DNA from: a virus
Reading direction: 5' to 3' (one strand)
DNA length: 32,705 nucleotides
Virus record (IMG/VR): IMGVR_UViG_3300033143_004733
Coordinates: 1-32,705 of that record
The position numbers and the translations under genes are program-made. The notes beneath the pieces are model-generated. The model saw only the letters and a program-made list of their open reading frames with translations. It did no database searches and was not told the DNA's origin. Below are positions 173-25,732 of this stretch, in pieces (the first letter of the stretch is position 1; each line of letters begins with the position of its first letter).

Positions 173-3100
173 TTAAAACTCACCTGTTCCAGAAATCTCA
201 TAAAATACATCATGAGTGTCTGGGTCACCATATGTGATATTTGATGTTTGACTTGTAGTATACCATGTAGGAATACTTGCCCATCTCCAACGTTCATCTT
301 TAACATGTTGATTACCATCAACCCACGCATAAATAGCATTAAATCTAAGCACATATGTTCCTGTTGTTGGGATACTCCAATCAACTTCTGCATGTTTTGT
401 ATATGGTGAAAATACCTGTGATTCAACTAATGTAGTTCCATTATATAATTTAAGTGCACCACCAAATCCTGTATCAAATTCATCAACACCAGTCCAATCC
501 AGTGAAACAGTGAAACCAAATTCTGGTGGTGGTGGTGCGCTACCAGTTACAACGGTTTCAACATCACCATAACCAGTTTTAATGTTCGTGTCAAGTGGAT
601 AAAGACCGTTTTCAATAAATGCTCTGTAATAAGTTAATGTATTTGGTAATAATCCACTTGCGTTCGCAGTAAAGGGACTACCTGTATTTCCAATGTGATA
701 GTCTTTTTTAACTGTCGAATTTGTATTTGTTATCGTAAGACTTCCTGCTTGTGACGCATTTTGTGTGTAAACCATACCATATCTTAATATGTTCGAAGGA
801 GTGCCAGCAACATAAGTATTATGTGGAGTATCAAAACCAGTTCCACTAAGTAACATAAGTGGATTAGTGTCTGTTGTTACACTATATGCGACAGCAGGTT
901 CTGTACCTATCATTGCTGTCCTTGGACTACCATAATATGCAGTTCCACCAACAACCATATATGCACGATATTCATAAGTTGAATTGTAATCAAGTCCAGT
1001 AAGATTTGAAACATTGAAGTAATTAACCGAAAGCGGTCCTGCTGCTGGTGAAGATGGTTGATATGACCAAGGAAGTGATGGGATTTTTCTATATTGTATC
1101 GCATAATTTGATATATCTTCATATCTTACAATATCAATACCACCAATATGTAATAATTGATTACCAACCACAGTACCTATCTTTGTCTCAATACTTGGGT
1201 CTGGTAATGGTGCTTGGGGTGTTGTGAATGAACGTATATTACCAGTAGCACCAGTTGAAAGTGATTCGATAAACGCACGATAATCATACCAAGTATCATA
1301 AGCCAGTCCATCTAACGTCATACTGAAATTATTGACCGTAAGTGCAGGATTAGGTGGGATTGTCTTTGATATTCTTGTCCAATTATCTTCCATTGTTTCT
1401 ATTTCAAAATCAATTCCTTCTAATAAGTTTTCTAATCCAATTGGAAGTGCGTTACCATATGGATAGTAAGGATATTTTAGTTTATAATCAATACCATATT
1501 CAATAACCTCATTCCATCCTATAATGTTTTCACCACCAGTTGTAAAACTACCCAACACACCCTGTGTTGTTTCAACATACAGTTGTGTGGGTGGAGGTGG
1601 AGGTGCGGGTGTTTCTTGAGCAATACTAAATGTAGCACCATCAGTACCAAAATATTGCATTAACGGATTACCCCTTTTATCTATTGTTATTGACCCATTA
1701 GCATATAAATTTACACCTCTTTTATACCAATGCTTCTGTTTCGTAAAAATACTGTTTCTAATTAATAACCCACCTCTTCTCAATATAATTGTTGCCGACA
1801 ATAATTGGTCAACAAATCTCTGGAAGAAAGCATTATATTTACTCAGGAACGGATATAGGTTCTGGAACGTATATCCATTAGATTGTAATGGGTCGTCATC
1901 TGGAAGAAGTGCTCTTTCCAAATATGTTTCATATAATTTCAATATTGTTGGATACCAACCACCTTTAAAATCGGTAACAACTTTTCTATTTCTAACGTTT
2001 ACCATTTTCCTCTGAACCAATTCGAGGAATTCCAAAAACGATAATTCACTAATATCACCAAGTCCAAACACATCATTTATAACTGGATTAAATGCTCCTG
2101 CTCCACCAACAATATAATATGCACTAATTACAGTACCAAATCTAAGTCCTCTTGGTAAGAAAATCTCGTATGGATTCTGCACATTAACGTTATAATCAGT
2201 AATTGGTTCTAAAGCGATTCCATCAACTAAAAATTTAACATCACTTGCTTGATTTACTCTGTAATTAAGTTTATATACGTATTTGTTTGCGCTATTATTG
2301 AAATAAATCTTACTACTATTAAAACTATCGATTCTAATTACTTCACTTCTTAAATTAATTTCATTCGTGTTCTCCACATGAAGATAAGAAATTTGCACAT
2401 CGGGGTTCTGATTAAGATATGCAATAACATCTGGATTCTGAATAATAATTTGATTTGTTCCACCAGTCGAATTTGCTGGGTCAAGAATATAATCAGCAAC
2501 GAATTGAGGCGTACCTTTAGTAAGTGCAATACCGTTAATTGTTAATTGGACATCACCATGTGGAAAACTTGGTAACGGAATATATGTTCCTCCCAAAATT
2601 GCTTTAACACGTGTCACAATATAATCAACTGTCATTGTTAAACCAGTTAATGTTGTTGCACCTGAATTAGTAAATGTTACCTGAATCACGTCAGAAGGAC
2701 GTGTTCCACCACTAAGTTCATATATTGTAAAATATTTCCCATTTACTTCATAATCTGCTTGATATGTAATTCCTGATGTAGTTCCAGTAGTATTACCAGT
2801 TGAAGGAGCATTTAATAAAATTCCATTATATCTTACTTCAAAATTACCCTGATGATTATAATCAAAAGGTAGTGAGAATGTATTACCTGTTTGTGGTAAT
2901 GATGAAATGTTAACATATGAATATGGTAATGTGTATCCACTTGAGTTGGCAGCAAAATCTTTTTGAATATATTCATAAACATCATATTCAATACCACGTG
3001 CAGTATCAAGTGAAATATCGACTTCTTTGGTATTAATCACCAATTTACTGTCTTCTTGATAATATTGTGGTGTTGTACTGTGAATTCTTGTAGTTGCTCC

Positions 3101-4798
3101 ACTTTGTTCCCATGATTTCTTATTATCGGGTGTTTGTTTAAGATTGAACCCAGCCATACGAAATACATCGAGATATGCCTGACCACTATCACTATTACCA
3201 CTGAGTTGAAAATAGAAATCATTGGTTTCCAATGGTGCAACAGGATATCCTTCGGTATCATACGGTAATGAATTTGAAGGAAAATCAGCTTGTGCGAGAG
3301 ATACGGTATTTGGATTAATCTTACCATCTACGGTATATACGTATTCTGTGATGTTAATGAAAGGTTCTGGAATACCAATTAACAAGAACATTGATTTTAT
3401 TGCTTGACGAGTACCTTTTGATTTCCAAAAATAACTTGTGTTATTAATAATTCTTCTCCAGAGTTCAATATCAATTTCTGCTGGTAAGATATTCTCATTT
3501 AAATTTCTTTCCGTATCATCTACAGTTAAAAATCCTTCAACTAATTCACTTTCATTCACCAACGAAAAATAATCCCAACCAAAGGTATTTGCCATATTCT
3601 TTATTAATTGGTCAGGTATGTTATTTAATTTATTATATGTAACCTTATTAATGTTAACCAATGAATCAATAAACTGTCTGAGTTGGTCAAATTCTCTTCC
3701 ATATAATCTCAGTAGTTTAGGTATTTTACCATCATCAGTATAGTCATACATTTTAAGTGAATCAGGTGTTAAGAATCTTGCAATTAAATCAGTTTTTATT
3801 TTATCATATTTCTCAGCAATAGTCAATACAATTTTCAAAAATCTTTGATATGTTGGTGTATTGACATCAATATTATATTTATCACTGGTTGTCCAGAGAA
3901 TTTGCGAATCACTATAAATAATTTTACCGTCTTCAAGCTGTGTTGGGTTTTTTAAGGTGAACACAAATCCATCAGTATTATCTCTTTCTGAAACCATATT
4001 TTGTTCATAACTATTAAGGAATGCTCGGAATTCTTCAAAAGTAACATTATTTGGTCTGATATGATAATCAATATTAGCAGTAGTTCCAGTTCCCATTAAT
4101 GCAAAAGGATTGCCTTCGACCTGTAATTTCAAATGGTTATTCATTGAAATTGTTGTTCCAGTATAGTCAAGAGAACTATTTACAGTATTTCCAGTATAAC
4201 CAACAATTATAAATAATGTATCTGGTTCAAGACTCGACCAAATGACATACTTTTCATATGAATCATTTAAGTTTTTTAACTCATTATCATCAGGTATACT
4301 CGTATTACCATCATTAATAACTAAACCAAAGGTATTAATAGTTGACTCCGTTGGAACATAAAATGTCGAGACATTCGAAACAATATCATAGTTAAGTCCT
4401 TTATACGTTGGATTTCCACCTATTTCTTTTTGTGAATTAGCGAACAACGACCCCGGGTATGCCAAAATCACATTCTGAATACTTGTTCTAAGAAATTCAT
4501 ATGCCGACCCATATCTAACAAAAGTATTTAAATCTGATTTATCGAGATTCAATACGGCATTTGTTGTATAGTCATGAATTATTTCAGACTGTATTTCTGA
4601 AACATTAAGTGTTTCTAATGTAACTGGACGAACAAATGAACTCAAAGAATTGGTGTAATCAATAGTTACCTTATTATCAAAGTTCGTTGTAACGAAAAAC
4701 TTTCCAAAAGAAAATATTGTATTGGATGGGGTATCATTAAAATACTCCCCATTTAAATTCCCATTAAGTTGTGTTTTTATTACTTTTACCTTTGCCAC
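173..4798 (-). CDS. Giant baseplate wedge/tail appendage protein (P2 gpI-like region plus Fn3-like modules)
   Basis: A 1541-residue structural protein, probably a T4 gp7-like wedge component joined to a surface appendage. The start is GTG at 4798 (GTG GCA AAG); no better upstream ATG exists, and a GTATTTATA motif lies 14 nt upstream. Residues 455-476 contain FWKSKGTRQAIKSMFLLIG, the pattern seen in P2 gpI-type tail proteins. Residues 1-1050 look like wedge and beta-rich structural sequence. A proline run (APPPPPP, about 1065-1070) then leads into three Fn3-like modules, roughly 1072-1195, 1202-1295 and 1302-1418. Each ends with a Y-x-YRA(F/Y)-type strand (YDYRAFIES, YEYRAYMV, YYRAFIEN). A second proline hinge (APPPPE, about 1421-1426) leads to a unique C-terminal domain. 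The order after gp25- and gp6-like genes fits a baseplate operon. The Fn3-like part may bind glycans or the host surface. Structural role is firm; exact T4 equivalence is inference. Confidence 0.8.
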   Translation of the reverse strand: MAKVKVIKTQLNGNLNGEYFNDTPSNTIFSFGKFFVTTNFDNKVTIDYTNSLSSFVRPVTLETLNVSEIQSEIIHDYTTNAVLNLDKSDLNTFVRYGSAYEFLRTSIQNVILAYPGSLFANSQKEIGGNPTYKGLNYDIVSNVSTFYVPTESTINTFGLVINDGNTSIPDDNELKNLNDSYEKYVIWSSLEPDTLFIIVGYTGNTVNSSLDYTGTTISMNNHLKLQVEGNPFALMGTGTTANIDYHIRPNNVTFEEFRAFLNSYEQNMVSERDNTDGFVFTLKNPTQLEDGKIIYSDSQILWTTSDKYNIDVNTPTYQRFLKIVLTIAEKYDKIKTDLIARFLTPDSLKMYDYTDDGKIPKLLRLYGREFDQLRQFIDSLVNINKVTYNKLNNIPDQLIKNMANTFGWDYFSLVNESELVEGFLTVDDTERNLNENILPAEIDIELWRRIINNTSYFWKSKGTRQAIKSMFLLIGIPEPFINITEYVYTVDGKINPNTVSLAQADFPSNSLPYDTEGYPVAPLETNDFYFQLSGNSDSGQAYLDVFRMAGFNLKQTPDNKKSWEQSGATTRIHSTTPQYYQEDSKLVINTKEVDISLDTARGIEYDVYEYIQKDFAANSSGYTLPYSYVNISSLPQTGNTFSLPFDYNHQGNFEVRYNGILLNAPSTGNTTGTTSGITYQADYEVNGKYFTIYELSGGTRPSDVIQVTFTNSGATTLTGLTMTVDYIVTRVKAILGGTYIPLPSFPHGDVQLTINGIALTKGTPQFVADYILDPANSTGGTNQIIIQNPDVIAYLNQNPDVQISYLHVENTNEINLRSEVIRIDSFNSSKIYFNNSANKYVYKLNYRVNQASDVKFLVDGIALEPITDYNVNVQNPYEIFLPRGLRFGTVISAYYIVGGAGAFNPVINDVFGLGDISELSFLEFLELVQRKMVNVRNRKVVTDFKGGWYPTILKLYETYLERALLPDDDPLQSNGYTFQNLYPFLSKYNAFFQRFVDQLLSATIILRRGGLLIRNSIFTKQKHWYKRGVNLYANGSITIDKRGNPLMQYFGTDGATFSIAQETPAPPPPPTQLYVETTQGVLGSFTTGGENIIGWNEVIEYGIDYKLKYPYYPYGNALPIGLENLLEGIDFEIETMEDNWTRISKTIPPNPALTVNNFSMTLDGLAYDTWYDYRAFIESLSTGATGNIRSFTTPQAPLPDPSIETKIGTVVGNQLLHIGGIDIVRYEDISNYAIQYRKIPSLPWSYQPSSPAAGPLSVNYFNVSNLTGLDYNSTYEYRAYMVVGGTAYYGSPRTAMIGTEPAVAYSVTTDTNPLMLLSGTGFDTPHNTYVAGTPSNILRYGMVYTQNASQAGSLTITNTNSTVKKDYHIGNTGSPFTANASGLLPNTLTYYRAFIENGLYPLDTNIKTGYGDVETVVTGSAPPPPEFGFTVSLDWTGVDEFDTGFGGALKLYNGTTLVESQVFSPYTKHAEVDWSIPTTGTYVLRFNAIYAWVDGNQHVKDERWRWASIPTWYTTSQTSNITYGDPDTHDVFYEISGTGEF

Positions 4799-16146: not shown

Positions 16147-16740
16147 TTATTTAAATTTTATGATTTCCTCTTGAATGATATTCAATAATTTATTTGTTGA
16201 ATTGAAATTAACCACACCTTCACCGATAAGTGGACGAATACTACCCTTATCAACAAAATTCAATGTGTAGGTCACATCATCAGATAACTTGTTTTTGATT
16301 TTGGTGTACTCAGCAATCTTTTCAGCATTCCTATCCATGAAATCATCATACACAACAATCTCTTTCAAATCTTGATTATAATTCTCGATTCTCAATATAA
16401 TATCACCTTTATCTTCACGACCTCTTTTCGTAATAAGGTCATCGACAGTAATTCCATTCAGTTTTAAAATATTTTCAAGTTCAGGACGCAGTTTCTCCAT
16501 ACGAGAAGTCAGAATAATCGTACTGGTATCAGGGTCAGCCATGTCTGTTTGAAGTTTTGCAAGAATGTTTGGGAATGGTTTGATTTCAAATACATCGGTG
16601 TCAAGACTTTCTCTGCGCCCCCACCATCCAACGTGTGGATATGGTTGACCCATTTTCTCTTCCCATTGTACTTTTCCTGTTTCTGGTTCTGGGGAATCAA
16701 TTAGTGTTCCATCAAAATCATATACTGCCAATCTTTTCAT
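16147..16740 (-). CDS. HAD-superfamily phosphatase, Swiss-army-knife RNA-repair type, 197 aa
   Basis: A 197-residue HAD hydrolase predicted to remove phosphate groups in the cytoplasm. All four HAD motifs are visible: motif I DFDGTL (8-13, nucleophile D8 and acid D10), motif II ILTSR (76-80, T78), motif III lysine in EDKGDI (K111), and motif IV VVYDD (129-133, D132/D133). The insert QPYPHVGWWGRRESLDTD after motif I, with its G-W-W and S-L, resembles HAD domains of the Swiss Army Knife RNA repair family. In those proteins a phosphatase is linked to RNA ends. Its start is 1 nt from the nuclease gene and it shares the operon with the 2H/CCA giant protein, which supports an RNA 3'-phosphate role. 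HAD fold sure; RNA substrate is inference. Confidence 0.75.
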   Translation of the reverse strand: MKRLAVYDFDGTLIDSPEPETGKVQWEEKMGQPYPHVGWWGRRESLDTDVFEIKPFPNILAKLQTDMADPDTSTIILTSRMEKLRPELENILKLNGITVDDLITKRGREDKGDIILRIENYNQDLKEIVVYDDFMDRNAEKIAEYTKIKNKLSDDVTYTLNFVDKGSIRPLIGEGVVNFNSTNKLLNIIQEEIIKFK

Positions 16741-16741
16741 G

Positions 16742-17248
16742 CTATTTGTATATTGTTGTCATTATAAATTGTTCGATATCAGAGAATGGTACAATAACCA
16801 CCATATCTCTTCGACCCATTCTTTTATATCTATGATATGCTATTTCAGAAAGGTCATCTGGTTTAAGGAACACATAACCAGTTGGATTTACTATTTTGCT
16901 TTCAACAAACTCCTTTATTTTCACTCTATGAATTAAATCAAATCGGTCTTCTCTTTCAAAGGCAATCGCATGCGCTTTTCCTTTTATCCAACCATCTTTA
17001 CCATTAACTGCTTGAAATTCAATCCAAGTAAGTCCATCCTTATGACTTTCCTTATATCCTTTTACATCAACACGTGCAAACTTACCATGACCTTTACTCA
17101 TCTTAACATCCCAATGTTCATGCCTGTCTTGATAATTTGTTGGTCTTATACATCGGTATCCATCACGTGTCGCTAATTCTATGAAATAATCTTCGACCTT
17201 TAAACCATCAGCATACATTTGTTCTTGTAATTCATGAATAGTTGCCAT
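16742..17248 (-). CDS. PD-(D/E)XK-like nuclease domain protein, 168 aa
   Basis: A 168-residue protein with the layout of a small PD-(D/E)XK nuclease. An early helix carries E20 (GLKVEDYFIELA). A strand pair follows with D47 (EHWDVKM) and the D-x-K signature (ARVDVKGYK, D61 and K63), then a third strand with an acid (GLTWIEFQAV, E77). These would bind metal and cut DNA or RNA. The length suits resolvase-like and repair-type members. It lies 3 nt after the giant multidomain gene and 1 nt before the HAD gene, so it is almost certainly co-translated with them. Possible roles are trimming nucleic-acid ends or attacking host DNA. Fold assignment by motif only. Confidence 0.6.
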   Translation of the reverse strand: MATIHELQEQMYADGLKVEDYFIELATRDGYRCIRPTNYQDRHEHWDVKMSKGHGKFARVDVKGYKESHKDGLTWIEFQAVNGKDGWIKGKAHAIAFEREDRFDLIHRVKIKEFVESKIVNPTGYVFLKPDDLSEIAYHRYKRMGRRDMVVIVPFSDIEQFIMTTIYK

Positions 17249-17251
17249 AAC

Positions 17252-20200
17252 TTATTCTTCACTTACTTTTCCAGTTAAATTCAATGGAAACCCAAGAGGC
17301 TTCCAGTCTTTCAGTTTATTTGACATAAATGGTTTACCACCATCGGCACGATTAACAGCAATTGTTATGTGTGGTTTTGGATTATTAGAATGATAACCTT
17401 CAACACCAACTGCCATAACCAGTTCGTCCATCGCATAATCAATCACTCTCAACGAAATCTCAATGTTCTTCTCCATATCTTCCTGCGCATCACTACCGTT
17501 TTCAAGTGCACCCATCATTATTGTCATGTGATGTGCAACAACTTCCCAACCTTCAGGTATCATCGGACTTAAAACCTTAAGTAAACTGGCTCTTGATTTA
17601 TCATCAAGAACAACTGCGCTATAACTCACTCTTTTCACTTCTTCTTCTCCTAATAAATTTCTATCTGTTAATGCCCAATATAATTCTTTCCTTAATTTTT
17701 CATCAACACTGAAGTCTTCATAATTATTCTGAAGAAATTCCAGTACTGATTCATGTGATGCATCATGATATCCACTATCTTTCCCACCTTGATTATTCCA
17801 TTTATCGTATTCCTTAACAAAAAAATCAATAGTTACTTGCTTTCCATTGACATTCCATGTCTTTGGTTGTATACCATCGTAATTAGGGTATCCTTCTTGA
17901 ATTTCCTTATCTTTCTCTCTCACCAAAGATAGTAATTCTTCTCGGTCATTCCTAACATTATCACTATAAACTTTAATTAATAATGATTTCAACATATCAC
18001 CAATTTCCCTACCTTGTAATCCCATACTCATTAAAACGTTTCCATCAATAGCGAGTTCACCAAAATCTTTTGGATATTTTCCAGTCAACAATTCCTGTGC
18101 TGCTCTTTTTATTGGTTCAGGTAAAATCTCACTGTTTAATGTATTTGGTAAAATCTTGAAGATGTTATGTGCAAGAGTTCTTGCTGTAACATTATCTATA
18201 TTATCATCGGCTTGAAATGCTTGTTGAAATGCTTTTAATTCTTTATATGTATCAATATCACATTTCAGTTTCGATTTACAATATTCCGCAATGTCTTGAA
18301 CAAGATGATGTGCTGTAAGCCAAAGAAATTCTCCCATTGTTTTAACAACATTCCATTCTTTACCCATATATAAACCACCATCACCGTTAAATATTTGTGG
18401 GGTAAGTCCTAAATCTTTAAGTAAATACGCTCCTTCAAACGCATTACCTTTCTTAACAATTTTATCAAACTCAATTAATATCCTTTCAGGTGGAATTTCT
18501 TTAATTCGACCTGCATTCTTTTTAATCATTTCTCTGGTCTCGTCATCAATCTTGAAACCAAAACGTGCAGCGAATTGAACAGCACGTAACATTCTCAAAG
18601 GGTCATCACTAAATGCTTCTGGATTAACGATACGAATAATTTTATTTTTAAGGTCTTCTTGACCACCAAAAGGGTCAATTATATTACCATCAATATCTTT
18701 AGCAATCGCATTAATCGTAAAATCCCTGCGTTCCAAATCTTTTTCAAGTGGAAGTTCGTGGTCTGATGACACATCAAATCCTTTATGACCACCTTCACCA
18801 GTCGCTTTTTCAGTTCTTGGAATCGCCACATCAATTTCTTCTGATGCACCTTGTGGCTTAAATTTTAACACACCAAATTGTTTACCCACTGCGTCAACTT
18901 TTCCATATTTTGACATGAGTGTACCTAACTTATCCATTGGAATGCCTGTCACAAGAATATCAAGGTCTTTACTTTCTTTACCTAAAAACTCATCACGTAC
19001 AGCACCACCAACGCTAAATATCTTACCGCCAAGTTGTTCGACCTCTTCTTTAAAAGGTAAGTCTTGTAATGACATTATATTCTCATTCATATCGGGTACA
19101 AGACTACTAAAATATTCTGAGACTTCCAAATCATCTTCATTCACAGAACCAAATTCCAAATTATTAATGTCGCCTTGATTACAAGCAACACTGGTATTAC
19201 CCAAACCTGCAAGCTGACATTTCCTCTTTACTTTAACGGTTTTTGAACCAGTACCAAAAGATTTGTCTCTTTCGATTAATGCGTTATCACCATTAATCTT
19301 ATTATCATAATATGTATATAATCTTCTCGTTAATTTTTTCTTATTATCAGCATTCAAATTTCGAATAAATTCTCCATTAAATGGTTTATTATGCTCTATT
19401 GAATCTTGAAACAATTTTGAAATGAAAACATTAAAGTCTGAATATTTTTCATATCTTTTTTTATTAGCATGTATATTTTTTAATCCTTCGAGATAATATG
19501 CATTATATTCTTCATCTCTATTATAATATGAATCGTTTGATGATTTGTAGGTATCACTATATTTAGTATCATCCAGATAATGGACAAATTCGTGGACAAA
19601 TGTATCTTCGTTCACCCAAGATGCAAATCTAATTCGGGCAAAATGTATATCCGATTCGACATTTTGTTTTGGTGGTTCGTCACTAAATGATTGTCGCTTC
19701 TCTAATATAAAAAAACAAAGTGTTTTTGTTTTAGGGTCAAAAAATGCCCTATTATTTTTCATTAAAGGAAAAAATGCTATTTGTAAATCAATTATACTTA
19801 TTTGGTTTATATTAAATCCGACACCACTAAACATTCTTTCACCATTCGTAGTATTGAATTCAAGTTCAATACTTTCAAATTTAATGTTATTAATATTCTC
19901 TTTAATTTTCTTATATAAATTCTTCCCTAAATTAGTGGTCTTTATATCAGAACCAAAATCTTCTCCTAACATATATTCGTCATCGGTTGCATCTCCTTTA
20001 ACATGATTATATTCAAGGTCTTCATACATCGCAACATTAGCATCGAGGTCATTATTAATGCTTGGTGAAGTATCGTTGGTATTGTAAGGGGGAAAACCGT
20101 CTTGTCCAACATCACTATCTGTACTGAATTTAGCACTACCGTCTTCATCTACTTCGACACCCATTTTTTCAGCACCATGAGGTTGCATAAAAAAATCTGT

Positions 20201-22543
20201 AAATCCAACATCAAAGAATCCAATTACTCCACTTGGTTTATATCCAAGATTTTCTGGATTATAAAAATCATAACTATCAATCCCATGTTCTCTGAGTTCT
20301 TCAACGATTCTTAAAATACTAAAAAAGAATTCTCCGTCTTGACTGTTCTTTTTAAAATAGTTATCAACTTTACTTTTATCAATTGCGTCATCATTATATT
20401 GATGACCATCCAAATATGAATCCAATGCTTCTTTATAATCGGTATCAAATATATTCTTGAAAACGTAATCAAGTCTCTCATACATTCGTTTAAAATTGGC
20501 TTCATCGGGAACGAGTTTTTCTAAAATAATCGCATATGTTTTCCATTCTCCCTCTGGTATGTTTTCTGGGGTTACCTCAAACACACGATAAACATCTGCA
20601 ATATATTTAAGTTTTTTACCAACCAGTTTCAGATTCTCATAAGCCTCACTATTATCTTTTGTGATTTTCAATACTTTATTATCCCCAATATCGTATGCAA
20701 CACCAATTGTACCATGTCCAAGATATTTAGGTTCTTGAATACCTAACTTAGTTGTAATTCTATTAGCAATTCTATCCGCTTTATCTCTTGGGTAATCTTC
20801 TTCGAGTTGTTCTTCAGTAATGTTTTCAGGTAATTGAATAACATCATCATCACCAATATTTGGTTCATCAACACCATAATAACCACCAGTGTCAAAGAAT
20901 TTTAAAACACCGTCTTTATATCCAAGATTTCTTTTTTCAACATAGTCTTTTGATTTAATTCCATATCCCAATAATTCTTTGCGAATATTTAAAATACCAA
21001 CAAGAAACTCATATGCTGCTTGCCTATCGGTTTGACTAACATTTGCTGCTGGATTATCAGTCAATACATGTTTTGCTATTTCAAGCATCTGATTATAATC
21101 AAATCTCTTAGGAATTCTTATTGAAGATAAAATATCAGTATATCCCATTCCTGCTGGTTGAATTTTCTCTATATCATCATCAAATTTTCTGAATTTCTCA
21201 AGTGGTTTCTCATTAACATTTTCTTGCATAATAACAAAAATAGATTTATTTGTAGCTGTATCAAGAACCTTATATAAATTAAAAATTGTTGCAATGTTTT
21301 GTGGTCTTACTCTCAATAATTTTGATGCAGCATCAGCTTCACTAACATCCGTAGTTAATTTCATTACGAGATTATCATTTATTTGATAAGCAAAACCATT
21401 CGCACCACCACCAATATATTTTGGTTGTGTCAGACTTAATTTATTGGCAATCTCTCTCGCCAATTCATCAGCATAATTTCTATCAGTTAATGTATCGGGG
21501 TCAACAGCAGGTATATCTTCATTAATAACATAGCTTTCACTTAATAATGGGTCTCTATTATAGAATCCTCGTCTAATAAGATATTCTTGTAACTTCAATA
21601 AGTTCCCGTAAAACTGTTCTTTATTATCTACGTGATTCAGTGTTTCTCTTATGTTATTTACACATTCATGGAAACTATCAGCCAGTACAGAAATACCTTC
21701 CACTGATTTGTTAGGATATTTATCACGTTTCGAAACCAGATTAACGAAACCTTCATTAATAACTGCATTACTATTATCACCACCATCACTAACACTGTAA
21801 GGCATTTGTGCCCACATACCTGTTCTAATGTCTTGTCCACCACCAGCATCGCTTAATATGTCATCATTACCATCAGCATAATTGTAGAGTTCATACATCT
21901 GATATCTATTCCTCTTCTTTCTATCAGGACTATAATGGGTATCATAAACTTCATCATTAAGACCGTAATCAGTTAAAACAATTGCTGGTTGTCCATCACG
22001 AAGAACCTCACCATAACTACTTGGTCTTCCCATATCACCAGCATTTTGACCGTAATTGGCTATAAAATTACTTAAATCTTGTGCAAACTCGTTCTCGTAA
22101 AGAAACTCTTCTTCTTCACGAGTTATGTAGTTCTCTTCAAATCTTTTATTTTGTCCTTTACTTTGTACTTCATAATTTATTAAAAAATATCCCAATATAT
22201 CGAGATTCGGAATTTCTGTTAATTCTTCAATTCGTTTCTTTGTAACTTTTTTTGCCTTTTCCGCAATCAACCAAGTGTCATCATCTGCACTATCAAATAC
22301 TTCAGTTACGATATGTTGAGTATCACGATAATAACCAGCACCTGCTTCAGCACCATTCTGTGCAACGCCTTTGGCGTTCATTGCAAGTTTTAGTACCTTC
22401 TCACCATCAATATCATACACTCTTCTGCCAGTACCACTACCAATTCTTGGTAATCTTTCATCGGCATATCTCATCCTACCAGCATAGGAATTTATATTCA
22501 GAAATTCTGGTAAGAAATTTTGTTTAAATTCATCATAAGTCAT
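17252..22543 (-). CDS. Giant multidomain protein: kinase-like x3, HEFVH zincin, CCA-adding enzyme, 2H phosphoesterase (1763 aa)
   Basis: A 1763-residue polyprotein-like enzyme. Three protein-kinase-like units come first. Unit 1 has a glycine loop at about 34-40, K52 and TDYGL at 191-195. Unit 2 has KYIGGGANGFAYQI at 375-388, K395 and FFDTG at 549-553. Unit 3 has KYLGHGTIGVAYDI at 606-619, K626 and FFDVG at 776-780. A zinc metallopeptidase region follows, HEFVH at 984-988 with DEEYNAY at 1010-1016 as likely third ligand. Residues 1160-1550 are a full class II CCA-adding enzyme/poly(A) polymerase: VGGAVRDEFLG, DLDIL (D1193, D1195), D1238, RRDFTINAIA, DPFGGQEDL, DPLRMLRAVQFAARFGF, and the C-terminal IDGNVLMSMGLQGREIGDML. 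The end (1638-1763) is a 2H phosphoesterase with H1672-M-T and H1725-I-T. Together these point to RNA or tRNA end repair. Domain calls are strong; the joint function is inferred. Confidence 0.85.
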   Translation of the reverse strand: MTYDEFKQNFLPEFLNINSYAGRMRYADERLPRIGSGTGRRVYDIDGEKVLKLAMNAKGVAQNGAEAGAGYYRDTQHIVTEVFDSADDDTWLIAEKAKKVTKKRIEELTEIPNLDILGYFLINYEVQSKGQNKRFEENYITREEEEFLYENEFAQDLSNFIANYGQNAGDMGRPSSYGEVLRDGQPAIVLTDYGLNDEVYDTHYSPDRKKRNRYQMYELYNYADGNDDILSDAGGGQDIRTGMWAQMPYSVSDGGDNSNAVINEGFVNLVSKRDKYPNKSVEGISVLADSFHECVNNIRETLNHVDNKEQFYGNLLKLQEYLIRRGFYNRDPLLSESYVINEDIPAVDPDTLTDRNYADELAREIANKLSLTQPKYIGGGANGFAYQINDNLVMKLTTDVSEADAASKLLRVRPQNIATIFNLYKVLDTATNKSIFVIMQENVNEKPLEKFRKFDDDIEKIQPAGMGYTDILSSIRIPKRFDYNQMLEIAKHVLTDNPAANVSQTDRQAAYEFLVGILNIRKELLGYGIKSKDYVEKRNLGYKDGVLKFFDTGGYYGVDEPNIGDDDVIQLPENITEEQLEEDYPRDKADRIANRITTKLGIQEPKYLGHGTIGVAYDIGDNKVLKITKDNSEAYENLKLVGKKLKYIADVYRVFEVTPENIPEGEWKTYAIILEKLVPDEANFKRMYERLDYVFKNIFDTDYKEALDSYLDGHQYNDDAIDKSKVDNYFKKNSQDGEFFFSILRIVEELREHGIDSYDFYNPENLGYKPSGVIGFFDVGFTDFFMQPHGAEKMGVEVDEDGSAKFSTDSDVGQDGFPPYNTNDTSPSINNDLDANVAMYEDLEYNHVKGDATDDEYMLGEDFGSDIKTTNLGKNLYKKIKENINNIKFESIELEFNTTNGERMFSGVGFNINQISIIDLQIAFFPLMKNNRAFFDPKTKTLCFFILEKRQSFSDEPPKQNVESDIHFARIRFASWVNEDTFVHEFVHYLDDTKYSDTYKSSNDSYYNRDEEYNAYYLEGLKNIHANKKRYEKYSDFNVFISKLFQDSIEHNKPFNGEFIRNLNADNKKKLTRRLYTYYDNKINGDNALIERDKSFGTGSKTVKVKRKCQLAGLGNTSVACNQGDINNLEFGSVNEDDLEVSEYFSSLVPDMNENIMSLQDLPFKEEVEQLGGKIFSVGGAVRDEFLGKESKDLDILVTGIPMDKLGTLMSKYGKVDAVGKQFGVLKFKPQGASEEIDVAIPRTEKATGEGGHKGFDVSSDHELPLEKDLERRDFTINAIAKDIDGNIIDPFGGQEDLKNKIIRIVNPEAFSDDPLRMLRAVQFAARFGFKIDDETREMIKKNAGRIKEIPPERILIEFDKIVKKGNAFEGAYLLKDLGLTPQIFNGDGGLYMGKEWNVVKTMGEFLWLTAHHLVQDIAEYCKSKLKCDIDTYKELKAFQQAFQADDNIDNVTARTLAHNIFKILPNTLNSEILPEPIKRAAQELLTGKYPKDFGELAIDGNVLMSMGLQGREIGDMLKSLLIKVYSDNVRNDREELLSLVREKDKEIQEGYPNYDGIQPKTWNVNGKQVTIDFFVKEYDKWNNQGGKDSGYHDASHESVLEFLQNNYEDFSVDEKLRKELYWALTDRNLLGEEEVKRVSYSAVVLDDKSRASLLKVLSPMIPEGWEVVAHHMTIMMGALENGSDAQEDMEKNIEISLRVIDYAMDELVMAVGVEGYHSNNPKPHITIAVNRADGGKPFMSNKLKDWKPLGFPLNLTGKVSEE

Positions 22544-24934: not shown

Positions 24935-25732
24935 TTATTCATATTTTTTAAATACGAGTGTTATGTATTCAATTAAATGAGGAACGATATTAAGATATTC
25001 CATCTCACTTACATCATACCAACCATAATTAGTATTTTCATCATCAAGAGTAATGTCCGTTGGGTCATCCTCGTATCTGCAAGCAAATATGTGTTCAATA
25101 CTATCAGCATGTCTTTCAATACTAAATGATTTGGTAAATTTCTTAAGTTCTAAACCAGTTTCTTCCTCAATTTCTCTTTCAACTGCTTGTTGTGGTGTTT
25201 CGCCTTTATCAATACCACCACCAACAAGACCCCATTTACTTGGCATCCAAGGTGCTTTCTCACCTCTTTTCAATAAAAGGATTTTATTATCTTTATTTAC
25301 AATAACCGCAACACTATTTTTTTGTTTTTCTTTTTTCTCCTTTTTTTCGGCTTCATTCATCACATCATTATGTTGTCTATTCACATTAAATGCTTTCAAA
25401 TCCGAAGTCATATCATTGGTTATATCACGTCTAACTTCTCTACTGGTTTTCACAGCATTTCTGTCTTGATTTAACGTGGTTTCAATAAACGCTTTCATTG
25501 GTTGACCACCAGCAAGTGTGAATTGTGTGTTATCACCAGTTTGTGGATTAAAGTAGTCAAAATAATTCTTCAATCTCTTCATTGCTTGATAGGTGATAAC
25601 ACCGTTCTTAAGCATGAATTTAGCTCGTTTTACGCCCTCTCCTTGCGGATTGGATACCAAGGCTGTCTGGATACCTTTTAACACGTCTGAGGGTATCCTA
25701 TACGATTTATCATATAGTTCTTGGTTAGCCAT
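24935..25732 (-). CDS. Nudix hydrolase fused to a phage-type N-terminal domain, 265 aa
   Basis: A 265-residue fusion. Residues 138-265 are a Nudix hydrolase, an enzyme that splits nucleoside diphosphates linked to another group (mutagenic NTPs, ADP-ribose, NAD or RNA caps). The Nudix box is complete: G172-x5-E178-x7-R186-E187-I-x-E190-E191-x-G193-L, preceded by WGLVGGG and followed by a standard C-terminal helix. Residues 1-125 form a separate helical domain (SYRIPSDVLKGIQTALVSNP, KNGVITYQAMKRLKNYFDYF) typical of no known Nudix partner, linked by a Lys/Glu run. It overlaps the stop of the previous gene by 8 nt. Nudix sure; substrate and N-terminal role unknown. Confidence 0.85.
   Translation of the reverse strand: MANQELYDKSYRIPSDVLKGIQTALVSNPQGEGVKRAKFMLKNGVITYQAMKRLKNYFDYFNPQTGDNTQFTLAGGQPMKAFIETTLNQDRNAVKTSREVRRDITNDMTSDLKAFNVNRQHNDVMNEAEKKEKKEKQKNSVAVIVNKDNKILLLKRGEKAPWMPSKWGLVGGGIDKGETPQQAVEREIEEETGLELKKFTKSFSIERHADSIEHIFACRYEDDPTDITLDDENTNYGWYDVSEMEYLNIVPHLIEYITLVFKKYE

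What the first reader, a model, noticed from the sequence alone, without database searches (positions are those of the whole stretch)
17252..22543. 1763-aa phage protein joining kinase-like, zincin, CCA-adding and 2H phosphoesterase domains
The sequence directly shows a complete class II CCA/poly(A) polymerase module (G-G-A-V-R-D, DLD, RRDFTINAIA, DPLRMLRAVQFAARFGF) in the same chain as a 2H phosphoesterase with both HxT motifs, an HEFVH metallopeptidase motif and three kinase-like units. Established knowledge: 2H enzymes open 2',3'-cyclic phosphates left by ribonucleases, and CCA enzymes rebuild tRNA 3' ends. Inference: the protein repairs tRNA or other RNA 3' ends damaged by host anti-phage ribonucleases, or reshapes the tRNA pool. 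I know of no described system with this exact architecture.
Basis: partly seen in the sequence, partly recalled or inferred. Interest (0 to 1): 0.88.

Follow-up and report, generated by a model that had tools for sequence, protein, structure and literature searches.

The report
Phage tRNA-repair protein with swappable cargo
A very long protein from an uncultivated giant phage appears to join kinase-like domains, the phage's tRNA-end-building enzyme and an RNA-end-healing enzyme in one chain, and related phages carry different host-modifying enzymes at set places in the same gene order, which points to a modular tRNA-upkeep and counter-defence locus.

Summary
The 1763-aa ORF is real (minus strand). 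Residues 1154-1545 fold as a class II CCA-adding enzyme (Z 29.6; core catalytic residues kept in every aligned relative that covers them). Residues 1635-1763 form a 2H phosphoesterase resembling CNPase and fungal tRNA-ligase domains (Z 13.0). Two N-terminal units match kinases by fold, a third by motifs. The zincin call rests on one HEFVH motif in an insert seen only here.

It is one state of a widespread cassette. In 51 of 51 regions holding tag and CCA enzyme the order is kinase-like units, linker, a ~50-aa Cys tag, variable cargo, CCA enzyme, 2H; a HAD phosphatase follows in 36 of 40 testable regions. Modules are fused or split variably. Cargo includes GNAT, ADP-ribosyltransferase, NleE-like and LigT/Acb1-type 2H domains. 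All 14 large cassette contigs have tRNA matches and a single CCA-type gene, in the cassette; in eight tRNA-rich ones 255 of 269 tRNA genes lack an encoded CCA.

Best reading: a polyvalent-type protein that adds CCA to phage tRNAs and helps heal broken RNA ends, with exchangeable effectors. No activity was tested. Known kinds of domain, new architecture.

The parts
17252..22543 (-). 1763-aa multidomain ORF (P0001)
   Evidence: 100% and 99.9% identical copies in L002, L003; relatives
21545..22543 (-). kinase-like unit K1 (res 1-333): GSGTGRR 35-41, KVLKLA 49-54, GDMGRPSSYGEV 169-180, DYG 192-194; stand-alone ~225-aa relatives exist
   Evidence: PHROG 4301; label rests on motifs, fold barely tested
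20813..21511 (-). kinase-fold unit K2 (res 345-577): catalytic-loop-like SKDYVEKRN 531-539, DTG 551-553
   Evidence: PKR 6d3k_C Z 11.4, rmsd 3.7, 150 aligned
20159..20797 (-). kinase-fold unit K3 (res 583-795): DFYNPEN 759-765, DVG 778-780
   Evidence: CDK2 8fow Z 9.0, rmsd 3.1, 127 aligned; K2 and K3 profiles find each other
19937..20170 (-). conserved linker LNK (res 792-869)
   Evidence: model pLDDT under 50 for 799-873
19289..19927 (-). window-specific insert between linker and tag (res 873-1085), HEFVH 984-988 and EYNAYYLE 1012-1019: possible zincin-like peptidase
   Evidence: no Pfam or PHROG match for the 216-aa stretch 867-1082; low-confidence model
19136..19288 (-). conserved ~50-aa tag (res 1086-1136), KKKC-x11-CNQGDINNL type
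   Evidence: 66 viral loci; single match in 14 of 14 large contigs; 57 distinct sequences
17906..19084 (-). class II CCA-adding enzyme / tRNA nucleotidyltransferase (res 1154-1546)
17624..17860 (-). MID segment between CCA enzyme and 2H (res 1562-1640), function unknown
   Evidence: no Pfam match
17255..17635 (-). C-terminal 2H phosphoesterase, CNPase / tRNA-ligase CPD like (res 1637-1763), HMT 1672-1674 and HIT 1725-1727
16742..17248 (-). 168-aa ORF between 2H and HAD, function unknown, recognised in few regions
16147..16740 (-). HAD phosphatase related to HAD_SAK_1 (named for RNA-repair proteins; window match under its cut-off) and to PHROG 415 polynucleotide kinase

Best explanation
A polyvalent-type phage protein whose constant trailer keeps the tRNA pool usable and whose header and slots carry host-directed enzymes. 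(1) The CCA domain adds CCA to the 3' ends of phage tRNAs, whose genes nearly all lack it, and can rebuild trimmed host and phage tRNAs. (2) The C-terminal 2H domain opens 2',3'-cyclic phosphates left by metal-independent ribonucleases; by analogy with CNPase the product would be a 2'-phosphate, 3'-OH end. The HAD gene just downstream would remove the phosphate, and an RNA ligase encoded elsewhere in many of these phages would seal the break. (3) The kinase-like units, conserved tag and exchangeable cargo (GNAT, ADP-ribosyltransferase, NleE-like, LigT/Acb1-type 2H) act on host targets or signals; in this phage a HEFVH insert takes the slot before the tag. Modules may act as one chain or as adjacent genes. 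Shown by sequence, fold or context: domain identities, conserved order, neighbours, changing fusion states, differing cargo. Inferred: all activities, cooperation of CCA and 2H, and any delivery with the virion.
For: CCA: Z 29.6 to CCA-adding enzyme 6qy6, rmsd 3.8, 364 aligned of 373; GG-RD, DxD, RRD in 53 of 53 ungapped sequences (of 54) and D1314, R1317, R1320 in 54 of 54. One PF01743 match in each of 14 of 14 contigs, within 4 kb of the tag (10 of 14 control genomes also match, as cellular CCA or poly(A) enzymes should). tRNA matches in 14 of 14 contigs; CCA encoded in 14 of 269 tRNA genes from 8 tRNA-rich contigs. 2H: CNPase Z 13.0, rmsd 3.3, 125 aligned; PF08302 in 7 of 9 members; HxT 1 in 75 of 75, HxT 2 with H in 74 and T in 73 of 75. 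Among 18 longer (200 aa or more) 2H relatives outside the cassette, 15 have a GIPG-GKST P-loop and 17 DNTN, i.e. kinase-phosphodiesterase proteins; the one searched matches T4 polynucleotide kinase at E 0.0047; a K1 gene lies in 9 of the 18 fetched loci, directly upstream in 5. HAD_SAK_1 at E up to 0.01 in 39 of 40 HAD orthologues; HAD within 3 kb after 2H in 36 of 40. RNA-ligase families over cut-off in 12 of 14 contigs (together); Rnl1 type in 7 of 14 (0 of 14 control genomes). Purifying selection: dN/dS under 1 in 41 of 41 module comparisons that gave a value (43 made, nine chosen pairs). Cargo; ART-PolyVal in 9 of 89 segments.
Against: No activity, expression or virion data. CCA score is under the curated equivalog cut-off (163.9 against 290 bits), so CCA, partial or poly(A) addition is not settled. 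PF08302 falls short of its cut-off in the window, HAD_SAK_1 too (21.4 against 25.6). The VIA list shows 50 entries, all CCA/poly(A)-type or CNPase, so other 2H branches are not excluded; the Foldseek match to fungal RNA kinase 6u05 (E 4.5e-4) superposes badly (rmsd 18.4) and its range is not shown; an Acb1 model in BFVD scores similarly (E 7.8e-4). Six of 14 contigs have only 1-6 tRNA matches yet keep the CCA module, though contigs may be incomplete; tRNA-rich G002 has neither ligase family. PF09414 also matches 6 of 14 control genomes and PHROG 415 7 of 14, so these two are not specific. The window has no tRNA and no ligase turned up among its ORFs scanned. CCA and 2H are separate ORFs in 30 of 52 rows, so joint action in cis is not required. 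Iyer et al. 2017 (PMC5512222, section 20) proposed RNase or signal-degrading roles for other polyvalent 2H domains.
Confidence: 0.6

Rival explanations
1. Plain tRNA maturation: the CCA domain only finishes phage-encoded tRNAs; the 2H and the rest are unrelated passengers joined by gene fusion, and no repair of nuclease damage takes place.
For: 255 of 269 phage tRNA genes lack CCA; one CCA-type gene per contig; fusion states change at least 6 and 14 times on the CCA tree, as expected of loosely linked neighbours.
Against: Order is kept in 51 of 51 regions, with 2H in 46 and HAD following in 36 of 40; the 2H family is kin to kinase-phosphodiesterase proteins; six contigs with 1-6 tRNA matches keep CCA.
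Confidence: 0.2
2. Anti-signalling: the terminal 2H degrades cyclic nucleotides or cyclic oligonucleotides of host defences (Acb1-like) rather than RNA ends.
For: LigT/Acb1-type 2H domains occur in 14 of 25 segments after the CCA enzyme; an Acb1 model matches the C-terminal model at E 7.8e-4 in BFVD and phage phosphodiesterase 9q2y at E 0.021 in PDB, ranges not shown; PMC5512222 section 20 argues this for other 2H domains.
Against: The VIA matches of this domain are CNPase, its Pfam match is tRNA_lig_CPD and not Acb1 or LigT, and longer relatives carry a polynucleotide-kinase-like domain.
Confidence: 0.15
3. Chimaera or assembly artefact: the long ORF joins unrelated genes by error.
For: In several relatives the modules are separate ORFs.
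Against: Same 1763-aa ORF in two other contigs (100% and 99.9%; perhaps of one site); different fused chains up to 2688 aa in other contigs; purifying selection.
Confidence: 0.02

Closest known systems
Polyvalent proteins of phages and conjugative elements (Iyer et al. 2017, PMC5512222; found passages and sections 6 and 20 read)
   Same: Several enzymatic domains of unrelated activity in one chain; kinase-like domains, 2H, ADP-ribosyltransferase (Pfam ART-PolyVal in relatives), GNAT and possibly a zincin; variable architecture; free-standing versions of the same domains.
   Different: The passages read describe no CCA-adding enzyme in such a chain; here a fixed header (kinase, tag) and trailer (CCA, 2H, HAD) bracket the variable slots. 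Packaging in the virion is untested here.
Jumbo-phage RNA-repair set: CCA enzyme, 2H, HAD, RNA ligases (PMC7824862, found passages read)
   Same: Same enzyme types in large phages, with tRNAs and ligases.
   Different: The passages read name them as separate enzymes; here they form one collinear, often fused, cassette with effector slots.
Fungal tRNA ligase (kinase-CPD part) and vertebrate CNPase
   Same: 2H fold match to CNPase and sub-threshold Pfam match to tRNA_lig_CPD; other phages fuse a P-loop kinase to this 2H family, an arrangement I recall from Trl1.
   Different: In the window the neighbour domain is a CCA enzyme and not a P-loop kinase or ligase.
Bacterial class II CCA-adding enzymes (B. 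stearothermophilus 1miv, psychrophilic 6qy6)
   Same: Head, body and catalytic motifs.
   Different: Embedded in a 1763-aa phage chain; under the curated cut-off.

Membership tests
Class II tRNA nucleotidyltransferase (CCA-adding) | GGxVRD, DxD, RRD and (E/D)DxxR motifs (motif names recalled) | tested here: met
   GG, RD, DxD, RRD in 53 of 53 ungapped of 54; D1314 and R1317 in 54 of 54; D1313 is D in 49 and E in 5
Class II tRNA nucleotidyltransferase (CCA-adding) | Fold of a CCA-adding enzyme over its length | tested here: met
   6qy6 Z 29.6, rmsd 3.8, 364 of 373 aligned
Class II tRNA nucleotidyltransferase (CCA-adding) | Passes a curated CCA equivalog cut-off | tested here: not met
   NF009814 163.9 bits against 290: filed as class II nucleotidyltransferase, CCA specificity inferred
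Class II tRNA nucleotidyltransferase (CCA-adding) | Adds C, C, A to tRNA | not testable with these tools
   needs assay
2H phosphoesterase superfamily | Two HxT/S motifs | tested here: met
   H and T in 75 of 75 (first); H 74 and T 73 of 75 (second)
2H phosphoesterase superfamily | 2H fold | tested here: met
   CNPase 9etl_B Z 13.0, rmsd 3.3, 125 aligned
CNPase / tRNA_lig_CPD branch of 2H | Closer to this branch than to LigT or Acb1 | tested here: inconclusive
   VIA list holds only CNPase for this part but is capped at 50 entries; Acb1 model E 7.8e-4 in BFVD
CNPase / tRNA_lig_CPD branch of 2H | Pfam PF08302 over gathering score | tested here: not met
   21.2 bits against 23 in the window; 7 of 9 members match at E up to 0.01: works like it, membership not claimed
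Polyvalent protein | 2-15 domains of unrelated activity in one phage chain | tested here: met
Polyvalent protein | Shares domains typical of the class (ART-PolyVal, GNAT, kinase, zincin) | tested here: met
   ART-PolyVal 9 and GNAT (PF13508) 13 of 89 segments, none of them the window's insert; in the window itself only kinase-like units, 2H and an unproved HEFVH
Polyvalent protein | Packaged and delivered with the DNA | not testable with these tools
   needs virion proteomics
Polyvalent-protein kinase group | Loss of the C-terminal subdomain with catalytic residues kept | tested here: inconclusive
   K2 aligns to PKR 257-445 only and a stand-alone K1 ends shortly after its DFG; the other diagnostic residues were not checked
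Zincin-like metallopeptidase | HEXXH helix, third ligand, zincin fold | tested here: inconclusive
   HEFVH present; no relatives beyond two near-identical contigs, low-confidence model

The most novel reading that the evidence does not exclude
A so far undescribed polymorphic counter-defence locus of giant phages, possibly of Bacteroidota: a fixed kinase-tag header and a fixed RNA-end-healing trailer (CCA enzyme, CNPase-like 2H, HAD) bracket slots where effector domains are swapped by recombination anchored in the tag and CCA coding sequence, so that each phage delivers or makes a different set of host-modifying enzymes together with a constant tRNA-repair kit. The kinase-like units, which also sit beside kinase-2H end-healing genes in another phage group, may act on RNA or on tRNA-related targets.
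Probability: 0.4. Interest if true: 0.78.

Novelty: new variant of a known kind. Interest (0 to 1): 0.62.

Why it matters
If right, giant phages keep tRNA 3'-end upkeep and RNA-end healing in one modular locus next to exchangeable host-modifying enzymes. That gives a direct handle on how tRNA-rich phages survive tRNA-cutting defences, and the slots are a place to look for new effectors and anti-defence enzymes. The conserved tag at the cargo boundary is an unexplained, testable element.

Tried and rejected
Zincin: the insert was compared with the cargo segments and all ORFs of the fetched regions and with viral contigs; only the two near-identical contigs came back, so it is not filed as a zincin. 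Profile searches against solved structures gave nothing useful for the 2H alignment (chance Myb matches), the HAD alignment (none at E 0.01) and A7 (none). Comparison of the 2H profile with the mixed cargo alignment A8 was uninformative. TAG as a general sorting tag on many phage proteins: rejected, one match per contig in 14 of 14.

Annotated phage records: the whole chain matched 458 records, none over 80% of it; the 40 listed all match in the CCA region (418 not seen). No match for the 2H at 1e-5; for residues 1-800 one match at E 1e-5 (28%, Xanthomonas phage XacN1). Distant relatives of single modules do exist in known phages (PHROGs 4301 and 36523), and among viral models A0A345MND4 aligns over 628 columns (rmsd 18.8) and a 103-residue model A0A2Z5HI38 at 45% identity, so a related two-domain viral protein is not excluded. 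Record LR756504 has a stand-alone 388-aa CCA gene without the other modules in the 17 kb read. Bacterial genomes: the tag in one contig, binned as Bacteroidota, that holds the cassette: a weak host hint.

Rows dropped: the 2H scan kept 80 of 176 relatives; one search printed each architecture signature once; one search left out duplicate regions and segments under 60 aa; A5 holds 88 of the 120 segments plus the window insert; all 44 segments of A9 and 24 of 25 of A8 are in A5; these alignments only served to scan members. The CCA tree left out CCA matches of 330 aa or less and identical rows (53 kept), is a quick tree with 20 of 50 inner branches weakly supported, and no shuffled control was run; two of its rows (L155, L160) are other phages without the tag. 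One search left out W, L003 and L007 as duplicates; some of the 51 regions are near-identical. The tRNA-end check used the tRNA-rich stretches of 8 of 14 contigs.

Literature: searches listed no system of this make-up (asked only about phage BCSR5). Searches showed 12-15 of 209 to 2,260 papers; only the open PMC library was searched; apart from passages and sections of PMC5512222 and passages of PMC7824862 I saw listings with the starts of abstracts.

Full report
What is there. The ORF at 17252-22543 is real, 1763 aa, ATG start, minus strand. The window is a whole uncultivated virus record of 32,705 bases without tRNA genes. Other genes include a family B DNA polymerase and an SNF2-type helicase, a Nudix protein and a baseplate wedge protein, as in large tailed phages.

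CCA module. Pfam finds the poly(A)-polymerase head (2.2e-23) and RNA-binding domain (3.9e-14); PHROGs a tRNA nucleotidyltransferase (3.8e-70). A profile of 45 relatives finds the B. stearothermophilus CCA enzyme at 1e-50. The model of residues 1140-1763 (pLDDT 87.5) matches CCA-adding enzymes at Z 29.6, rmsd 3.8, 364 of 373 residues. GG-RD, DxD and RRD are unchanged in 53 of 53 ungapped sequences (of 54), and D1314, R1317 and R1320 in 54 of 54. NCBIfam's best model is a CCA tRNA nucleotidyltransferase over nearly its whole length, but under the curated cut-off (163.9 against 290 bits), so CCA rather than poly(A) or partial addition is inferred.

2H module. The first HxT is kept in 75 of 75 sequences, the second with H in 74 and T in 73. 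In Foldseek the first match after the CCA and poly(A) enzymes is a fungal RNA kinase entry (6u05, E 4.5e-4, poor superposition), which I recall as part of fungal tRNA ligase. Pfam's tRNA_lig_CPD matches at 2.2e-4, under its cut-off. In other phages the same 2H family is the C-terminal part of proteins with an N-terminal P-loop kinase: of 18 such longer proteins 15 have the P-loop and 17 DNTN; the one searched matches T4 polynucleotide kinase at E 0.0047. That make-up is that of an RNA end-healing enzyme. In 9 of those 18 loci a K1-type gene is present, directly upstream in 5. Against this, an Acb1 model matches the C-terminal model at E 7.8e-4 in BFVD.

Kinase-like units. The model of residues 1-1135 is weaker (pLDDT 65.7). 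K2 and K3 match kinases (PKR Z 11.4, CDK2 Z 9.0, where 7-8 is typical without a clear match); aminoglycoside phosphotransferases lead in Foldseek at 4e-4. K2 aligns only to the N-lobe and catalytic-loop part of PKR, like the kinase group without C-terminal subdomain of Iyer et al. (PMC5512222, passages). K1 is called from motifs.

Insert and tag. HEFVH (984-988) lies in a stretch found only in the window and two near-identical contigs. The ~50-aa tag after it was collected in 57 distinct sequences, gives one match in each of 14 of 14 large contigs, and no known family was found for it here.

The cassette. Profile searches brought 159 loci (L002-L160) that merge into 96 regions. In 51 of 51 regions with both tag and CCA the order kinase units, linker, tag, CCA, 2H is kept (45 with a kinase unit, 46 with 2H), and in 36 of 40 with room the HAD gene follows within 3 kb. 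Many flanking genes recur. HAD_SAK_1 matches 39 of 40 HAD orthologues at E up to 0.01, the window's own under the cut-off. Tag and CCA share an ORF in 29 of 44 rows and CCA and 2H in 22 of 52; on a quick tree these states change at least 6 and 14 times (20 of 50 inner branches weak, no shuffled control). So the single chain is one state of a labile operon. Fused chains reach 2688 aa and contigs 365 kb.

Cargo. Of 44 segments after the tag, 9 match GNAT (PF13508), 6 ART-PolyVal, 5 NleE-like and 3 LigT-type 2H models; of 25 segments after CCA, 14 match LigT/Acb1-type 2H (overlapping models) and 1 ART-PolyVal, all at E up to 0.01. Among 98 region pairs alignable at DNA level over both tag and CCA, the slot between them is under 50% alignable in 85. 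These pairs are not independent, faster divergence of shared cargo could add to this, and in the six pairs with CCA identity of 86% or more slot coverage is 1.00, 0.65, 0.65, 0.60, 0.60 and 0.32, so turnover is slower among close relatives. In one of them, L006 against L042, the ~90% match stops 13-16 nt after the tag and resumes 39 nt before CCA, two cargo blocks lie in swapped order, and synonymous divergence is 0.03-0.04 in K3, linker and tag against 0.28-0.49 in K1, K2, CCA and 2H: signs, in this pair, of recombination at the header. In the window the slot before the tag is filled and the tag-CCA slot is empty.

Genomic setting. The 14 cassette contigs of 168-365 kb all hold tRNA matches, 1 to 53 each. 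In the tRNA-rich stretches of eight of them 14 of 269 tRNA genes encode CCA (about 4 expected by chance). PF01743 gives one match per contig, within 4 kb of the tag, in 14 of 14. RNA-ligase families over cut-off occur in 12 of 14 (PF09414 10, PF09511 7); PF09414 also matches 6 of 14 control genomes, PF09511 none. The seven contigs with the Rnl1 type have 19 or more tRNA matches; G002 with 34 has neither ligase. PHROG 415 matches of about 300 aa lie outside the cassette in G001, G003, G004, G007, G008 and G009 (7 of 14 control genomes also match). Completeness of the contigs is not known.

Mechanism. I conclude that the trailer finishes and mends tRNA 3' ends (CCA) and heals cyclic-phosphate ends (2H, then HAD and ligase), while header and slots carry host-directed enzymes. 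CCA addition to phage tRNAs is the firmest part. Repair after nuclease attack, cooperation of the two domains and delivery are inferred. CNPase makes 2'-phosphates (abstract starts of PMC4643303 and PMC3290555 in the listing); if this 2H does so too, another enzyme must remove the phosphate, and the HAD is the candidate.

Known or new. The domain types are known in jumbo phages or polyvalent proteins (PMC5512222, PMC7824862, passages read). I found no description of a CCA enzyme in a polyvalent chain or of this bracketed cassette in the searches made (listings only, partly capped), and no annotated phage record matching most of the chain.

Noticed in passing
L131, L138, L146, L148, L151, L154, L156, L158, L160 (viral contigs): Stand-alone K1-type kinase genes (about 225 aa; partial in L158) in the same fetched loci as polynucleotide-kinase-2H proteins of another phage group, directly upstream in five: a second link of this kinase-like family with RNA end healing.
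   Followed up: partly
window 19136-19288 and 66 viral loci: Conserved tag with two conserved Cys and usually ACNQGDI, one match per large contig, at the header-cargo boundary; function unknown.
   Followed up: partly
L006 9489-10493, and regions L047, L055, L061: Opposite-strand ORFs of 334-358 aa sit inside or beside the cassette in some phages; not identified.
   Followed up: no
TAG-to-CCA slots of relatives (alignment A9): Five of 44 cargo segments match the cysteine methyltransferase effector family NleE at E up to 0.01, best 1.6e-6.
   Followed up: no
window 173-4798: 1541-aa minus-strand ORF with no PHROG match at E 0.1.
   Followed up: no
window 24935-25732: Nudix protein that recurs upstream of the cassette in many regions.
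   Followed up: no
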